This document shows, piece by piece, positions 38,978 through 51,631 of a stretch of DNA of 64,000 nucleotides. The stretch covers positions 1 to 64,000 of the forward strand of contig CALMNW010000064.1 in NCBI GenBank assembly GCA_937872095.1, given 5' to 3'. Below the pieces are notes generated by a model, which was not told where the DNA came from, did not search any database, and saw nothing but the letters and a program-made list of their open reading frames with translations. Each line of letters opens with the position of its first letter. Position 1 is the first letter of the stretch. This DNA comes from an uncultured Verrucomicrobiota bacterium (GTDB lineage: Bacteria; Verrucomicrobiota; Kiritimatiellia; CAIQIC01; Lenti-01). The position numbers and the translations under genes were made by a program.

Positions 38978-38996
38978 TTCGCGCAGTGTATCCGGT

Positions 38997-39037
38997 TTTT
39001 CCACGCTGTGGAAAATATTTTTCCACGCCGTGGAAAA
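38997..39037. promoter_or_regulatory. Tandem pair of TTTTCCAC-N3-GTGGAAAA palindromes
   Basis: Two perfect 8-3-8 palindromes at 38997-39015 and 39019-39037, separated by TAT, with centres 22 bp apart (about two helical turns). The pair lies between the divergent glycosyltransferase operon and the ClC gene. The same arrangement recurs at 41471-41511. It is probably a cooperative operator; as RNA it would give two 8-bp hairpins. Confidence 0.75.
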
Positions 39038-42846: not shown

Positions 42847-42962
42847 CCAGAGGTCAGAAGTCAGCGGTCAGAGGCCAGAACAACCCATGTTGGATATTGA
42901 ATATTGGACATTGAATATTGAAAGCCTTCCCTGAACTCCGCCCTCTGAACTCTGCACTCTAA
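42847..42962 (+). repeat. Three short-word repeat arrays before mvaS
   Basis: GGTCAGA-type words (42847-42878), ATATTG words (42890-42922, e.g. GGATATTGAATATTGGAC) and GAACTC words (42931-42960) follow one another with near 9-10 bp periodicity. They fill the gap between ssnA and mvaS. Similar word-like repeats are known to be dispersed in intergenic regions of some environmental bacteria. Confidence 0.7.
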
Positions 42963-42966
42963 AGCT

Positions 42967-44136
42967 ATGAAAATCGGAATCGACCTCATCTCCTTCCACA
43001 CCCCCGCCTACGTCCTCGACCTGCGCGTGCTGGCCGAGAAGCGCGGCGCCGATCCCGAGAAGTTCATCGTCGGCATCGGCCAGGAGCGCATGGCCGTCGT
43101 GCCGCCCGACCAGGACATCGTGACCCTCGCCGCCAACGCCGCCCTGCCCATCGTCGAAAAAGCCGGCCGCGAAAACATCGAACTGCTGCTTTTCGCCACC
43201 GAATCGGGCATCGACCAATCCAAGGCCGCGGCGATGTTCTGCCACAAGCTGCTGGGCCTGCCCTCGACCTGCCGCTGCCTCGAGACCAAGGAAGCCTGCT
43301 ACGGCGCCACGGCGTCCCTGCGCATGGCCGCCGCCATGGTCGCCGCGCGGCCCCACACCAAGGCCCTCGTCCTCGCCGCCGACATCGCCCGCTACGACCT
43401 CGCCAGCCCCGGCGAACCCACCCAGGGCGCCGGCGCCGTCGCCATGCTCGTGTCCACCCACCCGCGCGTCCTCGCCCTCGATCCCGAAGCCGGCTTCCAC
43501 GCCGAGGACATCATGGACTTCTGGCGGCCCAACTACCGCGAAGAAGCCCTCGTCGACGGCAAGTACTCCACCAAGATGTACCTGACCACCCTCATCGACG
43601 CGTGGAACAACTACAAGGCGGCGTCCCATCGCGGCCTGGCCGACCACGCCCACTACGGCTTCCACATGCCGTTCACCAAGATCGCCTACAAGTCCTACGA
43701 GCGCCTCTGCAAAACCGAAGGCGTCCCGCCGCCGCCCAGGGAAGAACTCGAACGCCTGCTCGAACCGGCCCTCCAGTACAACCGCCAGACCGGCAACACC
43801 TATGCCGCCTGCGTCTACGAAGGCTTCGCGTCCCTCCTCGACAACGCCCCCGCCGCGCTCGACGACCAGCGCATCGGCTTCTTCTCCTACGGCTCCGGCT
43901 GCATGGCCGAATTCTTCTCCGGCGTCGTCCAGCGCGGCTACCGCGAGCACCTCTTCACTGACGCCCATCGCGCCCTGCTCGCCACCCGCACCCCCGTCAC
44001 CTACCGCCAGTACGAAGACATCTTCAACTACGGCGTCCCCAAAGACGGCGCCGACCACGTCTTCGCCCCCTACCGCGGCGGCCCCTTCCGCCTCGCCGGC
44101 ATCAAAGACCACAAACGCCGCTACGAAGCCAAGTAG
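42967..44136 (+). CDS. mvaS: Hydroxymethylglutaryl-CoA synthase
   Basis: The 389-residue protein matches bacterial HMG-CoA synthases, which condense acetyl-CoA with acetoacetyl-CoA. The nucleophile Cys lies in ETKEACYGATASL. The N-terminal VGIGQERMAVVPPDQDIVTLA, the acid/base Glu region near the N-terminal third, and the C-terminal YGSGCMAEFFSG are conserved. Expected role: first committed step of the mevalonate isoprenoid pathway. No other mevalonate genes are in the window. Its last 45 bp are imperfectly duplicated at 44595-44639. Confidence 0.9.
   Translation: MKIGIDLISFHTPAYVLDLRVLAEKRGADPEKFIVGIGQERMAVVPPDQDIVTLAANAALPIVEKAGRENIELLLFATESGIDQSKAAAMFCHKLLGLPSTCRCLETKEACYGATASLRMAAAMVAARPHTKALVLAADIARYDLASPGEPTQGAGAVAMLVSTHPRVLALDPEAGFHAEDIMDFWRPNYREEALVDGKYSTKMYLTTLIDAWNNYKAASHRGLADHAHYGFHMPFTKIAYKSYERLCKTEGVPPPPREELERLLEPALQYNRQTGNTYAACVYEGFASLLDNAPAALDDQRIGFFSYGSGCMAEFFSGVVQRGYREHLFTDAHRALLATRTPVTYRQYEDIFNYGVPKDGADHVFAPYRGGPFRLAGIKDHKRRYEAK
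44092..44136 (+). repeat. 3' end of mvaS, copy 1 of a 45-bp duplication
   Basis: Encodes LAGIKDHKRRYEAK-stop. It matches 44595-44639 at 39 of 45 positions. Confidence 0.75.
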
Positions 44137-47332: not shown

Positions 47333-47875
47333 ATGCAAATCCTGAAGCTGAGCCGGGCCTTCACCTGGATCGAGCCGGGGCCGGTCGTCCTGATTTCCAC
47401 CTGCGACGGCCGGAAGAACAACCTCATGACCATCTCCTGGACGATGGTGGTGGATTTCACGCCGCGGTTCGCCCTGACCACCGGCGCGTGGAACCACTCG
47501 TTCCGGGCCCTCGACAAAACGCGCGAATGCGTCGTCGCGATTCCCGGCGCGGACTTGCTGGACGTCGTGGTGGGCATCGGCACGTGCTCGGGCGCGGAGG
47601 TCGACAAATTCGCCAAATTCCACCTCACGCCCCTGCCGGCGAAAATCGTCCGGGCGCCCTTGATCCAGGAGTGCCTGGCGAATATCGAGTGCAAGGTCGT
47701 CGACATCGTCCGGCGGCACGACATCGTCGTGCTGGAAGCCGTGGCCGCGCATCGAACCGCGGGCCGAAAGGAAACGCGCATGCTCCATGCGGTCGGCGAC
47801 GGCACGTTCATCGCGGACGGCCGGCGGCTGGATCGCCGGAAGGCCATGGCCGCCAAACTGCCGCCCGGCGTCTAA
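47333..47875 (+). CDS. Flavin reductase-like FMN-binding protein
   Basis: The 180-residue protein resembles the flavin reductase-like domain. GPVVLISTCDGRKNNLMTISW binds the flavin phosphate in the family, and TTGAWNHSFRALDKTRECVVAIP follows. It may be a reductase or a non-catalytic flavin/b-type protein. AAAGGAGG lies 6 nt before the ATG. A phased T-tract region begins at its stop codon. Confidence 0.83.
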   Translation: MQILKLSRAFTWIEPGPVVLISTCDGRKNNLMTISWTMVVDFTPRFALTTGAWNHSFRALDKTRECVVAIPGADLLDVVVGIGTCSGAEVDKFAKFHLTPLPAKIVRAPLIQECLANIECKVVDIVRRHDIVVLEAVAAHRTAGRKETRMLHAVGDGTFIADGRRLDRRKAMAAKLPPGV

Positions 47876-48000
47876 AATTGCCCATTTTCGAGCATTTTCG
47901 GGCCAAAATGGCCGATTTTGGACCGTTTTAGACCGAATTTCGGCGATTTTTCGCGATTTTCGGCCATTTTCGGCGATTTTTCGCAGTTGGAGCCGGTTTT
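47874..48000. other. Helically phased T/A tracts (predicted curved DNA)
   Basis: Runs of 3-5 T (or A) start at 47874, 47885, 47895, 47905, 47916, 47926, about 47937, 47947, 47957, 47967, 47977 and 47997, a spacing of close to 10 bp with one gap. Words such as CGGCGATTTT and GGCCATTTTC recur. Such phasing bends DNA. The rest of the 258-bp gap to 48133 has no gene. Confidence 0.7.
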
Positions 48001-48145: not shown

Positions 48146-48910
48146 GTGGCAAAAAATATGAAGCAGCCGATTCAATCGCAACCGGAAACGGGCCGGGAAT
48201 CCGGCTTCCCCGTTACGCAGTGGTCCCTGGTTTCGCAAGCCCGCGAAACCGACACGCACGTCCGGATGGCGGCCTTGGACAACCTGTTGGGCACGTATCG
48301 CCCGGTTTTGCTTCGGTATCTCGTCGGGGTTTGGCGCTTGAAAACGGAGCAGGCCGAGGACTTGCTTCAGAGCTTCATGGCCGAACGGATTCTGGAAAAA
48401 CAGCTGTTGGTCCAGGCGGATCGGACACGCGGGCGTTTCCGCTCCTTCCTGCTGAAATGCCTCGTCAATTACGTGAAAAGCTCCTTTCGGCGGGACCAGG
48501 CCCTCAAGCGCGGGCCGGACGCGAACCACCGGGTGAACGTGGACGACTATGCGGAGTCCATCCCCGACAAGCAGGCGGGCCATCAGGAGTTCGACGCGTG
48601 CTGGGCGCGCCAGGTGCTGGATCTGGCCATCGAGCGCATGCGGAAAGACTGCGAAGCCGCGGGGCGCCGCGATCTCTGGATCATGTTCCAGCGCAGAATG
48701 CTGGAGCCCACCTATTCGAACGCGGAACCGACGCCGTATGCGTCGCTGGTCGCGGAACTGGGCCTCCGATCTCCTGCGCAGGCCATGAACCTGCTGATTA
48801 CGGTCAAACGGAAATTCCGGAACATGCTGATCGAGACCATCCGGGAAACCGTCGCGGACGATGCGGACGTCGATCGGGAAATCATGGAATTGCAGCGCGC
48901 CTTAAAATAA
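48146..48910 (+). CDS. ECF-like sigma-70 family factor
   Basis: The 254-residue protein starts at GTG with GGGAGG upstream (ATG 48158 is an alternative). It has FPVTQWSLV near residue 22, typical of a sigma group in Planctomycetes/Verrucomicrobia. A region 2-like helix follows (LGTYRPVLLRYLVGVWRLKTEQAEDLLQSFM). The C-terminal part (YASLVAELGLRSPAQAMNLLITVKRKFRNML) replaces a typical region 4. It is operonic with an unknown protein and a Ser/Thr kinase, so it probably responds to that kinase. Confidence 0.85.
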   Translation: MAKNMKQPIQSQPETGRESGFPVTQWSLVSQARETDTHVRMAALDNLLGTYRPVLLRYLVGVWRLKTEQAEDLLQSFMAERILEKQLLVQADRTRGRFRSFLLKCLVNYVKSSFRRDQALKRGPDANHRVNVDDYAESIPDKQAGHQEFDACWARQVLDLAIERMRKDCEAAGRRDLWIMFQRRMLEPTYSNAEPTPYASLVAELGLRSPAQAMNLLITVKRKFRNMLIETIRETVADDADVDREIMELQRALK

Positions 48911-48977: not shown

Positions 48978-49505
48978 ATGAACCACTCATCCCCAGAAAC
49001 CGAAAAGACAGATCCCGCCAGTTTGGCCCGACTGTTCGACGGCACGAGCCGGGACGCGCCCTGGCAAGACGAGGAACTGAAACAGGTGTTTCGCCATCAG
49101 CTGACGGCGCCCGTTCAGTTCGACATGGCGGGCTTCAACCCGGATTGGGGAGAACGCCTGCGGTTGCTGGCGGCGGCGGAGGGCCTCCTGCTCCAAAGCT
49201 TCGGCGATTTGTTTGCGCATCCCCATCCGCCGGTCGAAATGCTGGAGATGGTGAAGGATTACGCGAAACGGTCGGCGGCTTCGCCCCGGCGGCACATTCC
49301 GAAAGACGTCGCCCGCGCGCTCTACTACCTGGCGATCGTCTCCGCGCGGCTGCGCTGCCGCCAACGGATCAGTTCGCTGGAGGATGAACAACTGATCCGC
49401 GGAGTGCAATGGCTGCTGGATCAACCGTGGCTGGACGACGCATCGAAGAGCCTTTTATCCGAGGGCTTGGCCATGCTGGGTGGCCGGCAGGAGGTGAATC
49501 CATGA
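48978..49505 (+). CDS. Unknown protein of the sigma/kinase operon
   Basis: The 175-residue, mostly helical cytoplasmic protein has no recognised domain. Its segment APWQDEELKQVFRHQLTAPVQFD resembles the short conserved stretches found next to kinases in this type of operon. The TGA overlaps the kinase ATG, so the two are translationally coupled. It may be a regulator linking kinase and sigma factor; that is inferred from position. Confidence 0.7.
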   Translation: MNHSSPETEKTDPASLARLFDGTSRDAPWQDEELKQVFRHQLTAPVQFDMAGFNPDWGERLRLLAAAEGLLLQSFGDLFAHPHPPVEMLEMVKDYAKRSAASPRRHIPKDVARALYYLAIVSARLRCRQRISSLEDEQLIRGVQWLLDQPWLDDASKSLLSEGLAMLGGRQEVNP

Positions 49506-51631
49506 AAACCCATCGCGACGATTCGGAACGCAACACCGTGCCCATGTCGAAAGGCCCGGGAGATATCGCGCACACCATGCTGCGGACGGGCATGCTGCAG
49601 GCCCCCGTCCAGCCCGGAGCGCAGGGTGCGGTCGACCGGTTCGAAATCATCCAGGCGCTCGAGGCCGGCGGCATGGGACAGGTTTTCCTGGCCCGCGAAC
49701 CCATTACGGGCGGCCGGGTCGCCCTGAAAATGATTCGTCCCGAACTGGCGGACAAAGACTGGGTCGTGCAGCGGTTCCTGACGGAAGCCCAGCACATGTA
49801 TCGCCTCTCGCACCCCAACATCCTGAAGGTTCTGGAGGTGTCGGATCGGAAAGCCGGCCCGTATTACGTGATGCCGTTTATTGAGGGAGGCAACCTGGCG
49901 CAGCGGATCCGTTCGGGCGTGCCGTTGCCGGAGGAGTTTATCCTCCCGGTTTCCCTTCAACTGGCCGAAGCCCTGAAGTTCGCCCACGGCCGCGGGATCA
50001 TCCATCGCGACCTGAAGCCGGCCAACGTGATGGTCGATCAAACGGGGTGCGTCTATCTGACGGACTTCGGACTGTTGCGCACCGTATTCAACGATGCCAG
50101 CATCGATGCCGGAAAGGACGTGGTCGAGGGCACCGCCGTATACCTGTCGCCGCTGGCCGCATCCGGAAAAGCGGAAGACACGCGGTGCGACATCTATGCC
50201 TTCGGCGCCATTCTGTATGAGATGCTGACCGGCTGGCGGCCGTACTCCGGAGAGACCAGCGAGGAAATCATCCGGGAAATCCTGGCCCACCCTCCCTGCC
50301 CCATCCTCGAGCTCAATCCGCAGGCTTCGAAAGGCCTGACCCTGATTGCCGAAGGCTGCATGGCACGGGAACTGCGCGACCGTTACGCGGAAATGGCCGA
50401 CGTCGTTCGCGACCTCCAACGAGTTGCCCGCAAGGAAACTCCGGCGGGGCCGCATGGCCGGCCGGCTTCCATGCGCACCGCTGGAAAATTCATAAAAGTG
50501 GCTTTGGTTGGCGTGGCTGGCGTGCTGGGCCTGGCCGTTGCCGCTTCGCTCTTCTGGTCGGCCCCGCTTGCCTTTCATGCGGGAACGCAACCGGAGTCAA
50601 AATTCTTCCGCAGCAAATTGGCTAAGATCGACAAAGGAGTTCCGCCACGGCCAAGCCTCGCCGAACTGCCCGATCCGGTGACCGAAAAGGCCAGGTATCT
50701 GGCGACGGAACCCAAAGAGGTTCTGCAGCAATACGTCTGGATTGAATCCGATCACTCGGTCTATTTTGCCCGGCGAATCATTTGCAAAAACTGGTCGCAG
50801 GACGCGATGACGGATATCACGATCCCCTGGACGAACGGGGTCGTCATGCAGGTGTTCGACTACAACGGAAATGCGCTACCATTGACGGAAGAGGCCGACC
50901 ATGCCCGCTGGCGGGTCACGCTGGAGGAACCGATTCCGCCGGACTGGACATTCAGACTGGTCGTGGTGGCCAGGCAAACCGACCTGCCGTTCTCATCGTC
51001 CAACGGCGTGACCACCTACTCATCCGACCTGATGGCATCCTCCGGCATTTTCTTCCCTCCGGGCGCTCGTCTGGTCGGGCAAATGCCCGCGACAAATATA
51101 AACGGACGCATGTTTTTCGTGAATAGACTCAACAGTCATGAGTGTTTCACCCATGCGGATGCGGCCAATCGCGCCTTCGATATTTACGAGCGGGAAGGCC
51201 GCAAGACGGACTCTCCCGCCGCCCATTGGAATCAGGCGCTGGCCGAGTTGGGCCTGGAAGAAAATCAATTGGTTCAACCCCCTCCCTTGCCGGAACAAAG
51301 CACCCATCGCCAGATCAGTTATACCTTACATTCTTCTGAACAAGCCGATGGAGAAGAGAAAACGCCGCCTCCCGCCATGTATTCCCTGCAATTCAAGCAA
51401 GCTCCCATTCGGCTCGTTACGGATTACTACGGGCAGCTTGCGGGACAAACCGTGCTGCTGAGCCAGCAGGTCGACCCTGCCGCGAACCTGACCCTGAAAT
51501 CCAATGACCGCATACCCAAATCGCAGGCCATGCGCATGATCGAAACCGCGCTGGCCGATCAGGGCATCCTGCTCATCGAAACGAACGGGTGCCGGATGGC
51601 TATACCGGCAGCAAAAACGCGCGCCCCCTAA
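49502..51631 (+). CDS. Transmembrane Ser/Thr protein kinase with secretin-N-like tail
   Basis: The 709-residue protein has an active-looking Hanks kinase domain: GGMGQVF loop near 56-62, VALK Lys76, HRDLKPANV with Asp170, and DFG at 188-190. The APE region is altered to YLSPLA. A membrane helix lies near 350-375, followed by an extracytoplasmic beta-rich region. The last about 75 residues (IRLVTDYYGQLAGQTVLLSQQ ... MRMIETALADQGILLIE) resemble the N0/STN domain of secretins and TonB receptors. The ATG overlaps the previous stop. Confidence 0.88.
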   Translation: MKTHRDDSERNTVPMSKGPGDIAHTMLRTGMLQAPVQPGAQGAVDRFEIIQALEAGGMGQVFLAREPITGGRVALKMIRPELADKDWVVQRFLTEAQHMYRLSHPNILKVLEVSDRKAGPYYVMPFIEGGNLAQRIRSGVPLPEEFILPVSLQLAEALKFAHGRGIIHRDLKPANVMVDQTGCVYLTDFGLLRTVFNDASIDAGKDVVEGTAVYLSPLAASGKAEDTRCDIYAFGAILYEMLTGWRPYSGETSEEIIREILAHPPCPILELNPQASKGLTLIAEGCMARELRDRYAEMADVVRDLQRVARKETPAGPHGRPASMRTAGKFIKVALVGVAGVLGLAVAASLFWSAPLAFHAGTQPESKFFRSKLAKIDKGVPPRPSLAELPDPVTEKARYLATEPKEVLQQYVWIESDHSVYFARRIICKNWSQDAMTDITIPWTNGVVMQVFDYNGNALPLTEEADHARWRVTLEEPIPPDWTFRLVVVARQTDLPFSSSNGVTTYSSDLMASSGIFFPPGARLVGQMPATNINGRMFFVNRLNSHECFTHADAANRAFDIYEREGRKTDSPAAHWNQALAELGLEENQLVQPPPLPEQSTHRQISYTLHSSEQADGEEKTPPPAMYSLQFKQAPIRLVTDYYGQLAGQTVLLSQQVDPAANLTLKSNDRIPKSQAMRMIETALADQGILLIETNGCRMAIPAAKTRAP

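What the first reader, a model, noticed from the sequence alone, without database searches (positions are those of the whole stretch)
47874..48000. About twelve T/A tracts phased at near 10 bp before the sigma-factor operon
The tracts keep helical phase over roughly 125 bp in a GC-rich genome, built from degenerate CGGCGATTTT-type decamers. Such DNA should be strongly curved and could serve as a nucleoid-protein or promoter-architecture element for the sigma/kinase operon.
Basis: partly seen in the sequence, partly recalled or inferred. Interest (0 to 1): 0.65.

Follow-up and report, generated by a model that had tools for sequence, protein, structure and literature searches.

The report
Helically phased A-tract arrays bending DNA
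A 128-bp stretch of DNA carries a run of A's or T's at almost every turn of the helix and should bend sharply; it is not a special switch for the neighbouring sigma-factor genes but one of a scattered set of such bends in this bacterium and some of its relatives, most likely a chromosome-shape element.

Summary
In detail: eleven consecutive A/T tracts at 47873-47981 plus a twelfth at 47997-48000, period about 10.2 bp, the strongest predicted curvature in the window (roughly 140-165 degrees) and far beyond shuffled sequence. The link to the sigma operon fails: relatives of the sigma gene have no array upstream, and the array is missing behind the same flavin-reductase gene in two congeners. The same kind of array recurs at about a dozen other places in this genome and in some relatives of its family (pattern counts from 0 to 143 per genome), in divergent, convergent and codirectional gaps and even inside coding sequence. 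At one orthologous locus (DUF3108-pfkB) tract positions agree within about 1-2 bp in five species of two genera although bases are only 57-76% identical; A and T swap inside tracts, and synonymous codon positions follow the helical phase while encoding a signal peptide. This points to something read as DNA shape, independent of gene borders. Best reading: a patchily distributed, unusually regular form of the known bacterial A-tract cluster, acting as a static bend (loop or supercoil apex, or wrapping site). Function is inferred, not shown.

The parts
47873..47981 (.). core array: eleven A/T tracts of 4-7 bp at 9.5-11 bp spacing with G+C-rich linkers
47997..48000 (.). twelfth tract (TTTT), in phase after one missed position
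47333..47875 (+). flavin-reductase-like gene (PF01613); its stop codon is the start of the array; orthologues in G006 and G004 have no array behind them
48146..48910 (+). probable ECF-type sigma factor, weak match only (TIGR02937 E=6e-4, Sigma70_r2 E=0.013, both under the curated cut-offs); neighbour, not shown to be a target
48978..49505 (+). 175-aa ORF of the same gene cluster, no family match
49529..51631 (+). serine/threonine protein kinase (PF00069), neighbour in the same operon-like cluster

Best explanation
The stretch is a static DNA bend: A/T tracts repeated once per helical turn add up to roughly 140-165 degrees over 125 bp. It is one member of a dispersed set of such bends found in this genus and in some other genera of its family. 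The tracts matter through DNA shape (A/T minor grooves on one face, GGC/GCC on the other), not through protein, RNA or a base-specific motif, because A- and T-tracts are interchangeable and gene borders are ignored. Most likely the arrays fix the tips of supercoiled loops or offer wrapping sites to nucleoid proteins or gyrase, and so shape local chromosome topology. Shown here: presence, phasing, recurrence, and conservation of phase at one orthologous locus. Inferred: actual bending in solution, selection, any protein partner, the role in topology.
For: Phasing and predicted curvature. Discrete recurrence in the same genome. 10-bp versus 13-bp spacing control: 36 vs 2/1 hits in the own genome, 36 vs 0 in G006, 14 vs 0 in G004. 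In G013, 23 chains of five or more at 10.3 bp against 0-1 at four other periods. Tracts avoid TpA (20 of 122 against 57 expected) and linkers are 92% G+C. Conserved tract positions in five species of two genera with base identity 0.57-0.76 but A/T-versus-G/C class identity 0.74-0.89. Synonymous third positions A/T in 75/83 tract-phase and 11/74 linker-phase codons, 213/929 in the rest of the gene. Precedent: roughly 100-bp A-tract clusters proposed at loop apexes in E. coli (PMC4761138).
Against: No experiment. The window array itself is not conserved at the orthologous site in two congeners. Several family members have few or no arrays, so the feature is dispensable. Orthologues share descent, and several arrays were found through the pattern itself, so the conservation figures are partly circular. 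Some arrays look like copies of one another, which common origin could explain without function. No partner protein was identified.
Confidence: 0.5

Rival explanations
1. An old dispersed repeat family: the arrays are copies of one ancestral 100-bp sequence that spread and decayed, with bending a by-product and no function.
For: Window and C20 arrays align over about 104 bp at 72% identity; 14 of 66 pairs score p<0.05 against shuffles that keep tract polarity. In G167 the arrays lie in recurrent nearly identical repeats, often near contig ends. Patchy distribution in the family.
Against: Most pairs are no more alike than unit shuffles; A- and T-tracts swap while phase is kept; no terminal repeats or mobility gene were recognised; tracts persist at one locus in a genome whose third codon positions are mostly G/C.
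Confidence: 0.2
2. Promoter or UP-element-like architecture: the curved array upstream helps RNA polymerase at the next gene, here the sigma operon.
For: Upstream position relative to 48146; divergent gaps at C5 and C28; helically phased A-tracts aligned with transcription starts in Synechocystis (PMC9825172).
Against: No array upstream of sigma homologues elsewhere; arrays also lie between convergent genes and inside coding sequence; no sigma-70-like promoter was found around it.
Confidence: 0.12
3. A binding array for a lineage-specific protein that oligomerises along one DNA face and contacts the A/T minor groove once per turn, with bending secondary.
For: Regular one-face spacing over 9-12 turns; interchangeability of A and T tracts fits minor-groove readout.
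Against: No candidate protein; histone-fold PF00808 absent in ten genomes tested; other nucleoid-protein families were not searched.
Confidence: 0.12
4. Protein- or RNA-level cause: the pattern reflects encoded helices or signal peptides, or a terminator or structured RNA.
For: One array-like stretch in G009 (C13) encodes a Lys-rich C-terminal tail and is best explained that way; the DUF3108 and C63 arrays encode signal-peptide-like N termini.
Against: The window array lies between genes; RNA folding is no better than unit shuffles (z=0.78); no terminator-like site inside it; synonymous positions follow the DNA phase.
Confidence: 0.05

Closest known systems
A-tract clusters of the E. coli nucleoid (Tolstorukov et al. 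2005, cited in PMC4761138)
   Same: About 100 bp, helically phased A/T runs, predicted curvature, proposed role at loop apexes.
   Different: Those are a statistical excess in a 51% G+C genome; here they are near-perfect runs of 7-12 tracts in a 65% G+C genome, few per genome, and patchy among close relatives.
Genome-wide 10-11 bp A-tract periodicity of prokaryotes (PMC3431218, PMC3940949, PMC7537859)
   Same: Same period range and A/T-run signal.
   Different: Those are weak genome averages; the own genome shows no clear average signal in a 395-kb sample but discrete arrays.
E. coli DNA gyrase motif (PMC6379681)
   Same: About 130 bp, helically periodic G+C content, A/T inward on the wrapped protein.
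   Different: Gyrase motif has a non-periodic 36-bp centre and a 10.75-bp period; the array is periodic throughout at about 10.2 bp.
Helically phased A-tracts at Synechocystis promoters (PMC9825172)
   Same: Phased A-tracts near genes.
   Different: There they align with transcription starts; here they are indifferent to gene orientation and borders.
Periodic An/Tn clusters (PATCs) of C. elegans (PMC7725773)
   Same: Both A and T runs in roughly 10-bp phase, dispersed.
   Different: Eukaryotic, non-coding, 6-10% of the genome, linked to germline expression; no relation by descent.

Membership tests
Phased A-tract / intrinsically curved DNA | Runs of 4 or more A/T without TpA, repeated near 10-10.5 bp | tested here: met
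Phased A-tract / intrinsically curved DNA | Predicted curvature far above shuffled sequence | tested here: met
Phased A-tract / intrinsically curved DNA | Anomalous gel mobility | not testable with these tools
   needs bench work
Bacterial A-tract cluster (nucleoid packaging) | About 100-bp cluster recurring in the genome | tested here: met
Bacterial A-tract cluster (nucleoid packaging) | Role in nucleoid folding | not testable with these tools
   no chromatin data for this organism
Sigma-operon promoter element | Present upstream of homologous sigma genes | tested here: not met
DNA gyrase motif | Two periodic 47-bp arms flanking a non-periodic 36-bp centre, period 10.75 bp | tested here: not met
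   array is periodic throughout at about 10.2 bp against PMC6379681
Dispersed repeat element | Copies alignable beyond shared composition and order | tested here: inconclusive
   14 of 66 pairs; clear in G167 only
Intrinsic terminator or structured RNA | Stable stem followed by a T run, or folding better than shuffles | tested here: not met
Histone-wrapped DNA | A histone-fold protein (PF00808) in the genome | tested here: not met
   archaeal controls positive

The most novel reading that the evidence does not exclude
A lineage of Verrucomicrobia-related bacteria uses discrete helical-phase arrays as chromosome landmarks, bound by an unidentified protein that contacts one DNA face every turn; the constraint is strong enough to steer codon choice and to shape signal peptides where an array runs into a gene.
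Probability: 0.15. Interest if true: 0.75.

Novelty: new variant of a known kind. Interest (0 to 1): 0.5.

Why it matters
What A-tract periodicity is for in bacteria is an open question, usually studied as a weak genome-wide average. Here the signal is concentrated in discrete, near-perfect arrays, with array-rich and array-poor sister genomes, so its role, partner and selection can be tested one locus at a time. The arrays that run into coding sequence would be a clear case of DNA shape constraining codon choice.

Tried and rejected
Sigma-operon promoter element: rejected as the general explanation. Structured RNA or terminator: folding no better than unit shuffles, no terminator-like site inside. 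Genome-wide intergenic periodicity: a 395-kb sample of the same genome shows no clear overall 10-bp signal and only one other chain of five or more, so arrays are discrete. Histone partner: PF00808 not found. The G009 C13 array was dropped as evidence because it encodes a Lys-rich tail, but it is still in the pooled figures and in the G009 pattern count, so G009 is not used as support for abundance. My ORF caller is crude, so coding/non-coding labels near arrays are approximate. Curvature parameters and per-tract bend angles were recalled from memory.

Full report
What is there. Starting in the stop codon of a flavin-reductase-like gene (47333-47875, PF01613), the sequence has eleven A/T tracts in a row at 47873-47981 and a twelfth at 47997-48000, with spacings of 10, 10, 11, 10, 11, 10, 10.5, 9.5, 10, 10.5 and 20 bp. 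The best period is 10.25 bp with vector strength 0.97. Simulated 64-kb sequences never give a chain longer than 4, and shuffles of the 128 bp itself never longer than 6. A wedge-model calculation (parameters recalled from memory, checked on phased and unphased test repeats) makes it the most curved place in the window, end-to-end/contour about 0.55-0.60 and about 145 degrees, with 0 of 500 dinucleotide shuffles as low. A simple sum of A-tract bends gives 141-166 degrees of a possible 171, against at most 60 elsewhere in the window.

It is not tied to the sigma operon. The downstream ORF at 48146 is only weakly recognisable as an ECF sigma factor (TIGR02937 E=6e-4, Sigma70_r2 E=0.013, both under the cut-offs). 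Its homologues in other genomes have no phased tracts upstream. The flavin-reductase gene upstream has an 86% identical orthologue in G006 and a 67% identical one in G004; in both, the DNA after the stop codon is unrelated and has no array.

It recurs. The same genome carries equivalent arrays on C5, C20, C28, C79 and C43 and shorter or looser ones on C13, C25, C63, C70, C75 and C77. A 395-kb sample from elsewhere in the genome has no clear general 10-bp signal and only one other chain of five or more: these are discrete elements. A four-tract pattern at 10-bp versus 13-bp spacing gives 36 versus 2/1 hits (forward/reverse) in the own genome, 36 versus 0 in G006, 14 versus 0 in G004 and 35 versus 5/2 in G167. 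G009 gives 35 versus 1, but part of that is a gene for a Lys-rich tail (see below). Many other genomes of the phylum have few hits at either spacing, and some show a milder excess at 10 bp. Within the family, counts run from 0 (G010, G011) to 143 (G013); overlapping hits count several times, so these are not array numbers. In 278 kb of G013, partly chosen for known hits, there are 23 chains of five or more at 10.3 bp and 0-1 at 8.3, 12.3, 13.3 and 15.3 bp.

Anatomy. Tracts are A4-6, T4-6 or AnTm mixtures that avoid TpA: TpA occurs in 20 of 122 array tracts where 57 would be expected from background tracts of the same lengths. Linkers are 92% G+C and 70% contain GGC or GCC (these pooled figures include the G009 C13 array later set aside). 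A- and T-tracts occupy the same phase. A/T inward and G/C outward once per turn is the rotational pattern of wrapped DNA, a comparison the gyrase paper also makes. Contexts vary: divergent gaps (C5, C28), convergent gaps (C79, G004 C12), codirectional junctions and coding sequence.

The most informative locus is DUF3108-pfkB. There the array runs from the end of the upstream gene across the gap and the start codon through the signal peptide of the DUF3108 protein. In G000, G006, G004 (own genus), G009 and G013 (another genus) the tract centres lie near -11.5, -21.5, -32, -43, -53, -63, -73, -82.5, -93.5, -103, -113.5 and -124 from a fixed anchor, agreeing within about 1-2 bp in most positions, though G013 lacks some. 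Base identity over this stretch is 0.57-0.76, yet A/T-versus-G/C class identity is 0.74-0.89; it falls to about 0.3 when one sequence is shifted by half a turn and returns to 0.75 at 10 bp. Class-keeping substitutions are 46% of all, against 36% in the downstream coding region (40% at third positions). Synonymous third positions are A/T in 75 of 83 codons in tract phase, 11 of 74 in linker phase and 213 of 929 in the rest of the gene. G005, G015 and G010 have no array there and ordinary signal peptides. Orthologues share descent and several loci were found through the pattern itself, so these numbers support rather than prove selection on DNA shape; the G013 copy was reached by protein homology alone.

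Origin. Some arrays resemble each other beyond shuffled order: window and C20 over about 104 bp at 72% identity, and 14 of 66 pairs at p<0.05 when tract polarity is kept. In G167, of another family, arrays are embedded in recurrent, nearly identical repeats, often near contig ends. Copying probably plays a part; this and later shape-keeping selection are not exclusive.

Mechanism. The best-supported reading is a static bend that anchors a loop or supercoil apex or offers a wrapping surface, as proposed for the roughly 100-bp A-tract clusters of E. coli (PMC4761138). The partner is unknown. The E. coli gyrase motif is similar in length but has a non-periodic 36-bp centre and a 10.75-bp period (PMC6379681), so membership is not claimed. 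No PF00808 histone-fold protein was found in ten genomes, with archaeal controls positive. The promoter rival is weakened by the varied contexts; RNA-structure and terminator readings are not supported. One array-like stretch in G009 encodes a Lys-rich tail and has a protein-level explanation.

Verdict. Real, strongly non-random and predicted to be highly curved; the sigma-operon role is not supported; an unusually clear variant of a known kind of feature. The function is inferred.

Noticed in passing
L050:7539-7657, L060:9951-10068, L252:16800-16908, L190, L196: At the DUF3108-pfkB locus the array encodes the signal peptide of the DUF3108 protein, while array-free relatives (G005, G015, G010) have ordinary signal peptides.
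   Followed up: yes
25 arrays in own and related genomes, e.g. L052:9961-10054: Within arrays A-tracts tend to lie left and T-tracts right: 16 arrays against 5, Z about 3.6 but inflated by runs of like tracts. Unexplained.
   Followed up: partly
L285, L291, L294, L297, L298, L299 (G167): In a genome of another family the arrays sit inside a dispersed repeat with shared flanks, often near contig ends.
   Followed up: partly
L061:9981-10109 (G009 C13): An array-like stretch that encodes a Lys-rich C-terminal tail on the - strand: a false positive for phased-tract searches.
   Followed up: yes
window 49529-51631: The serine/threonine kinase ends in a stretch resembling the N0 domain of the GspD secretin (residues 620-687, E=4.9e-5, under the Pfam cut-off).
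   Followed up: no
window 42848-42960: Three neighbouring 7/14-bp tandem repeats of different sequence (CAGAGGT, TTGAATA, CTGAACT) just before the gene at 42967.
   Followed up: no
window 38996-39037: Two copies of a 22-bp palindromic unit TTTTTCCACGCCGTGGAAAATA.
   Followed up: no
G013 (L305-L324): A relative of another genus has the most arrays of the family by the pattern count (143 hits).
   Followed up: partly
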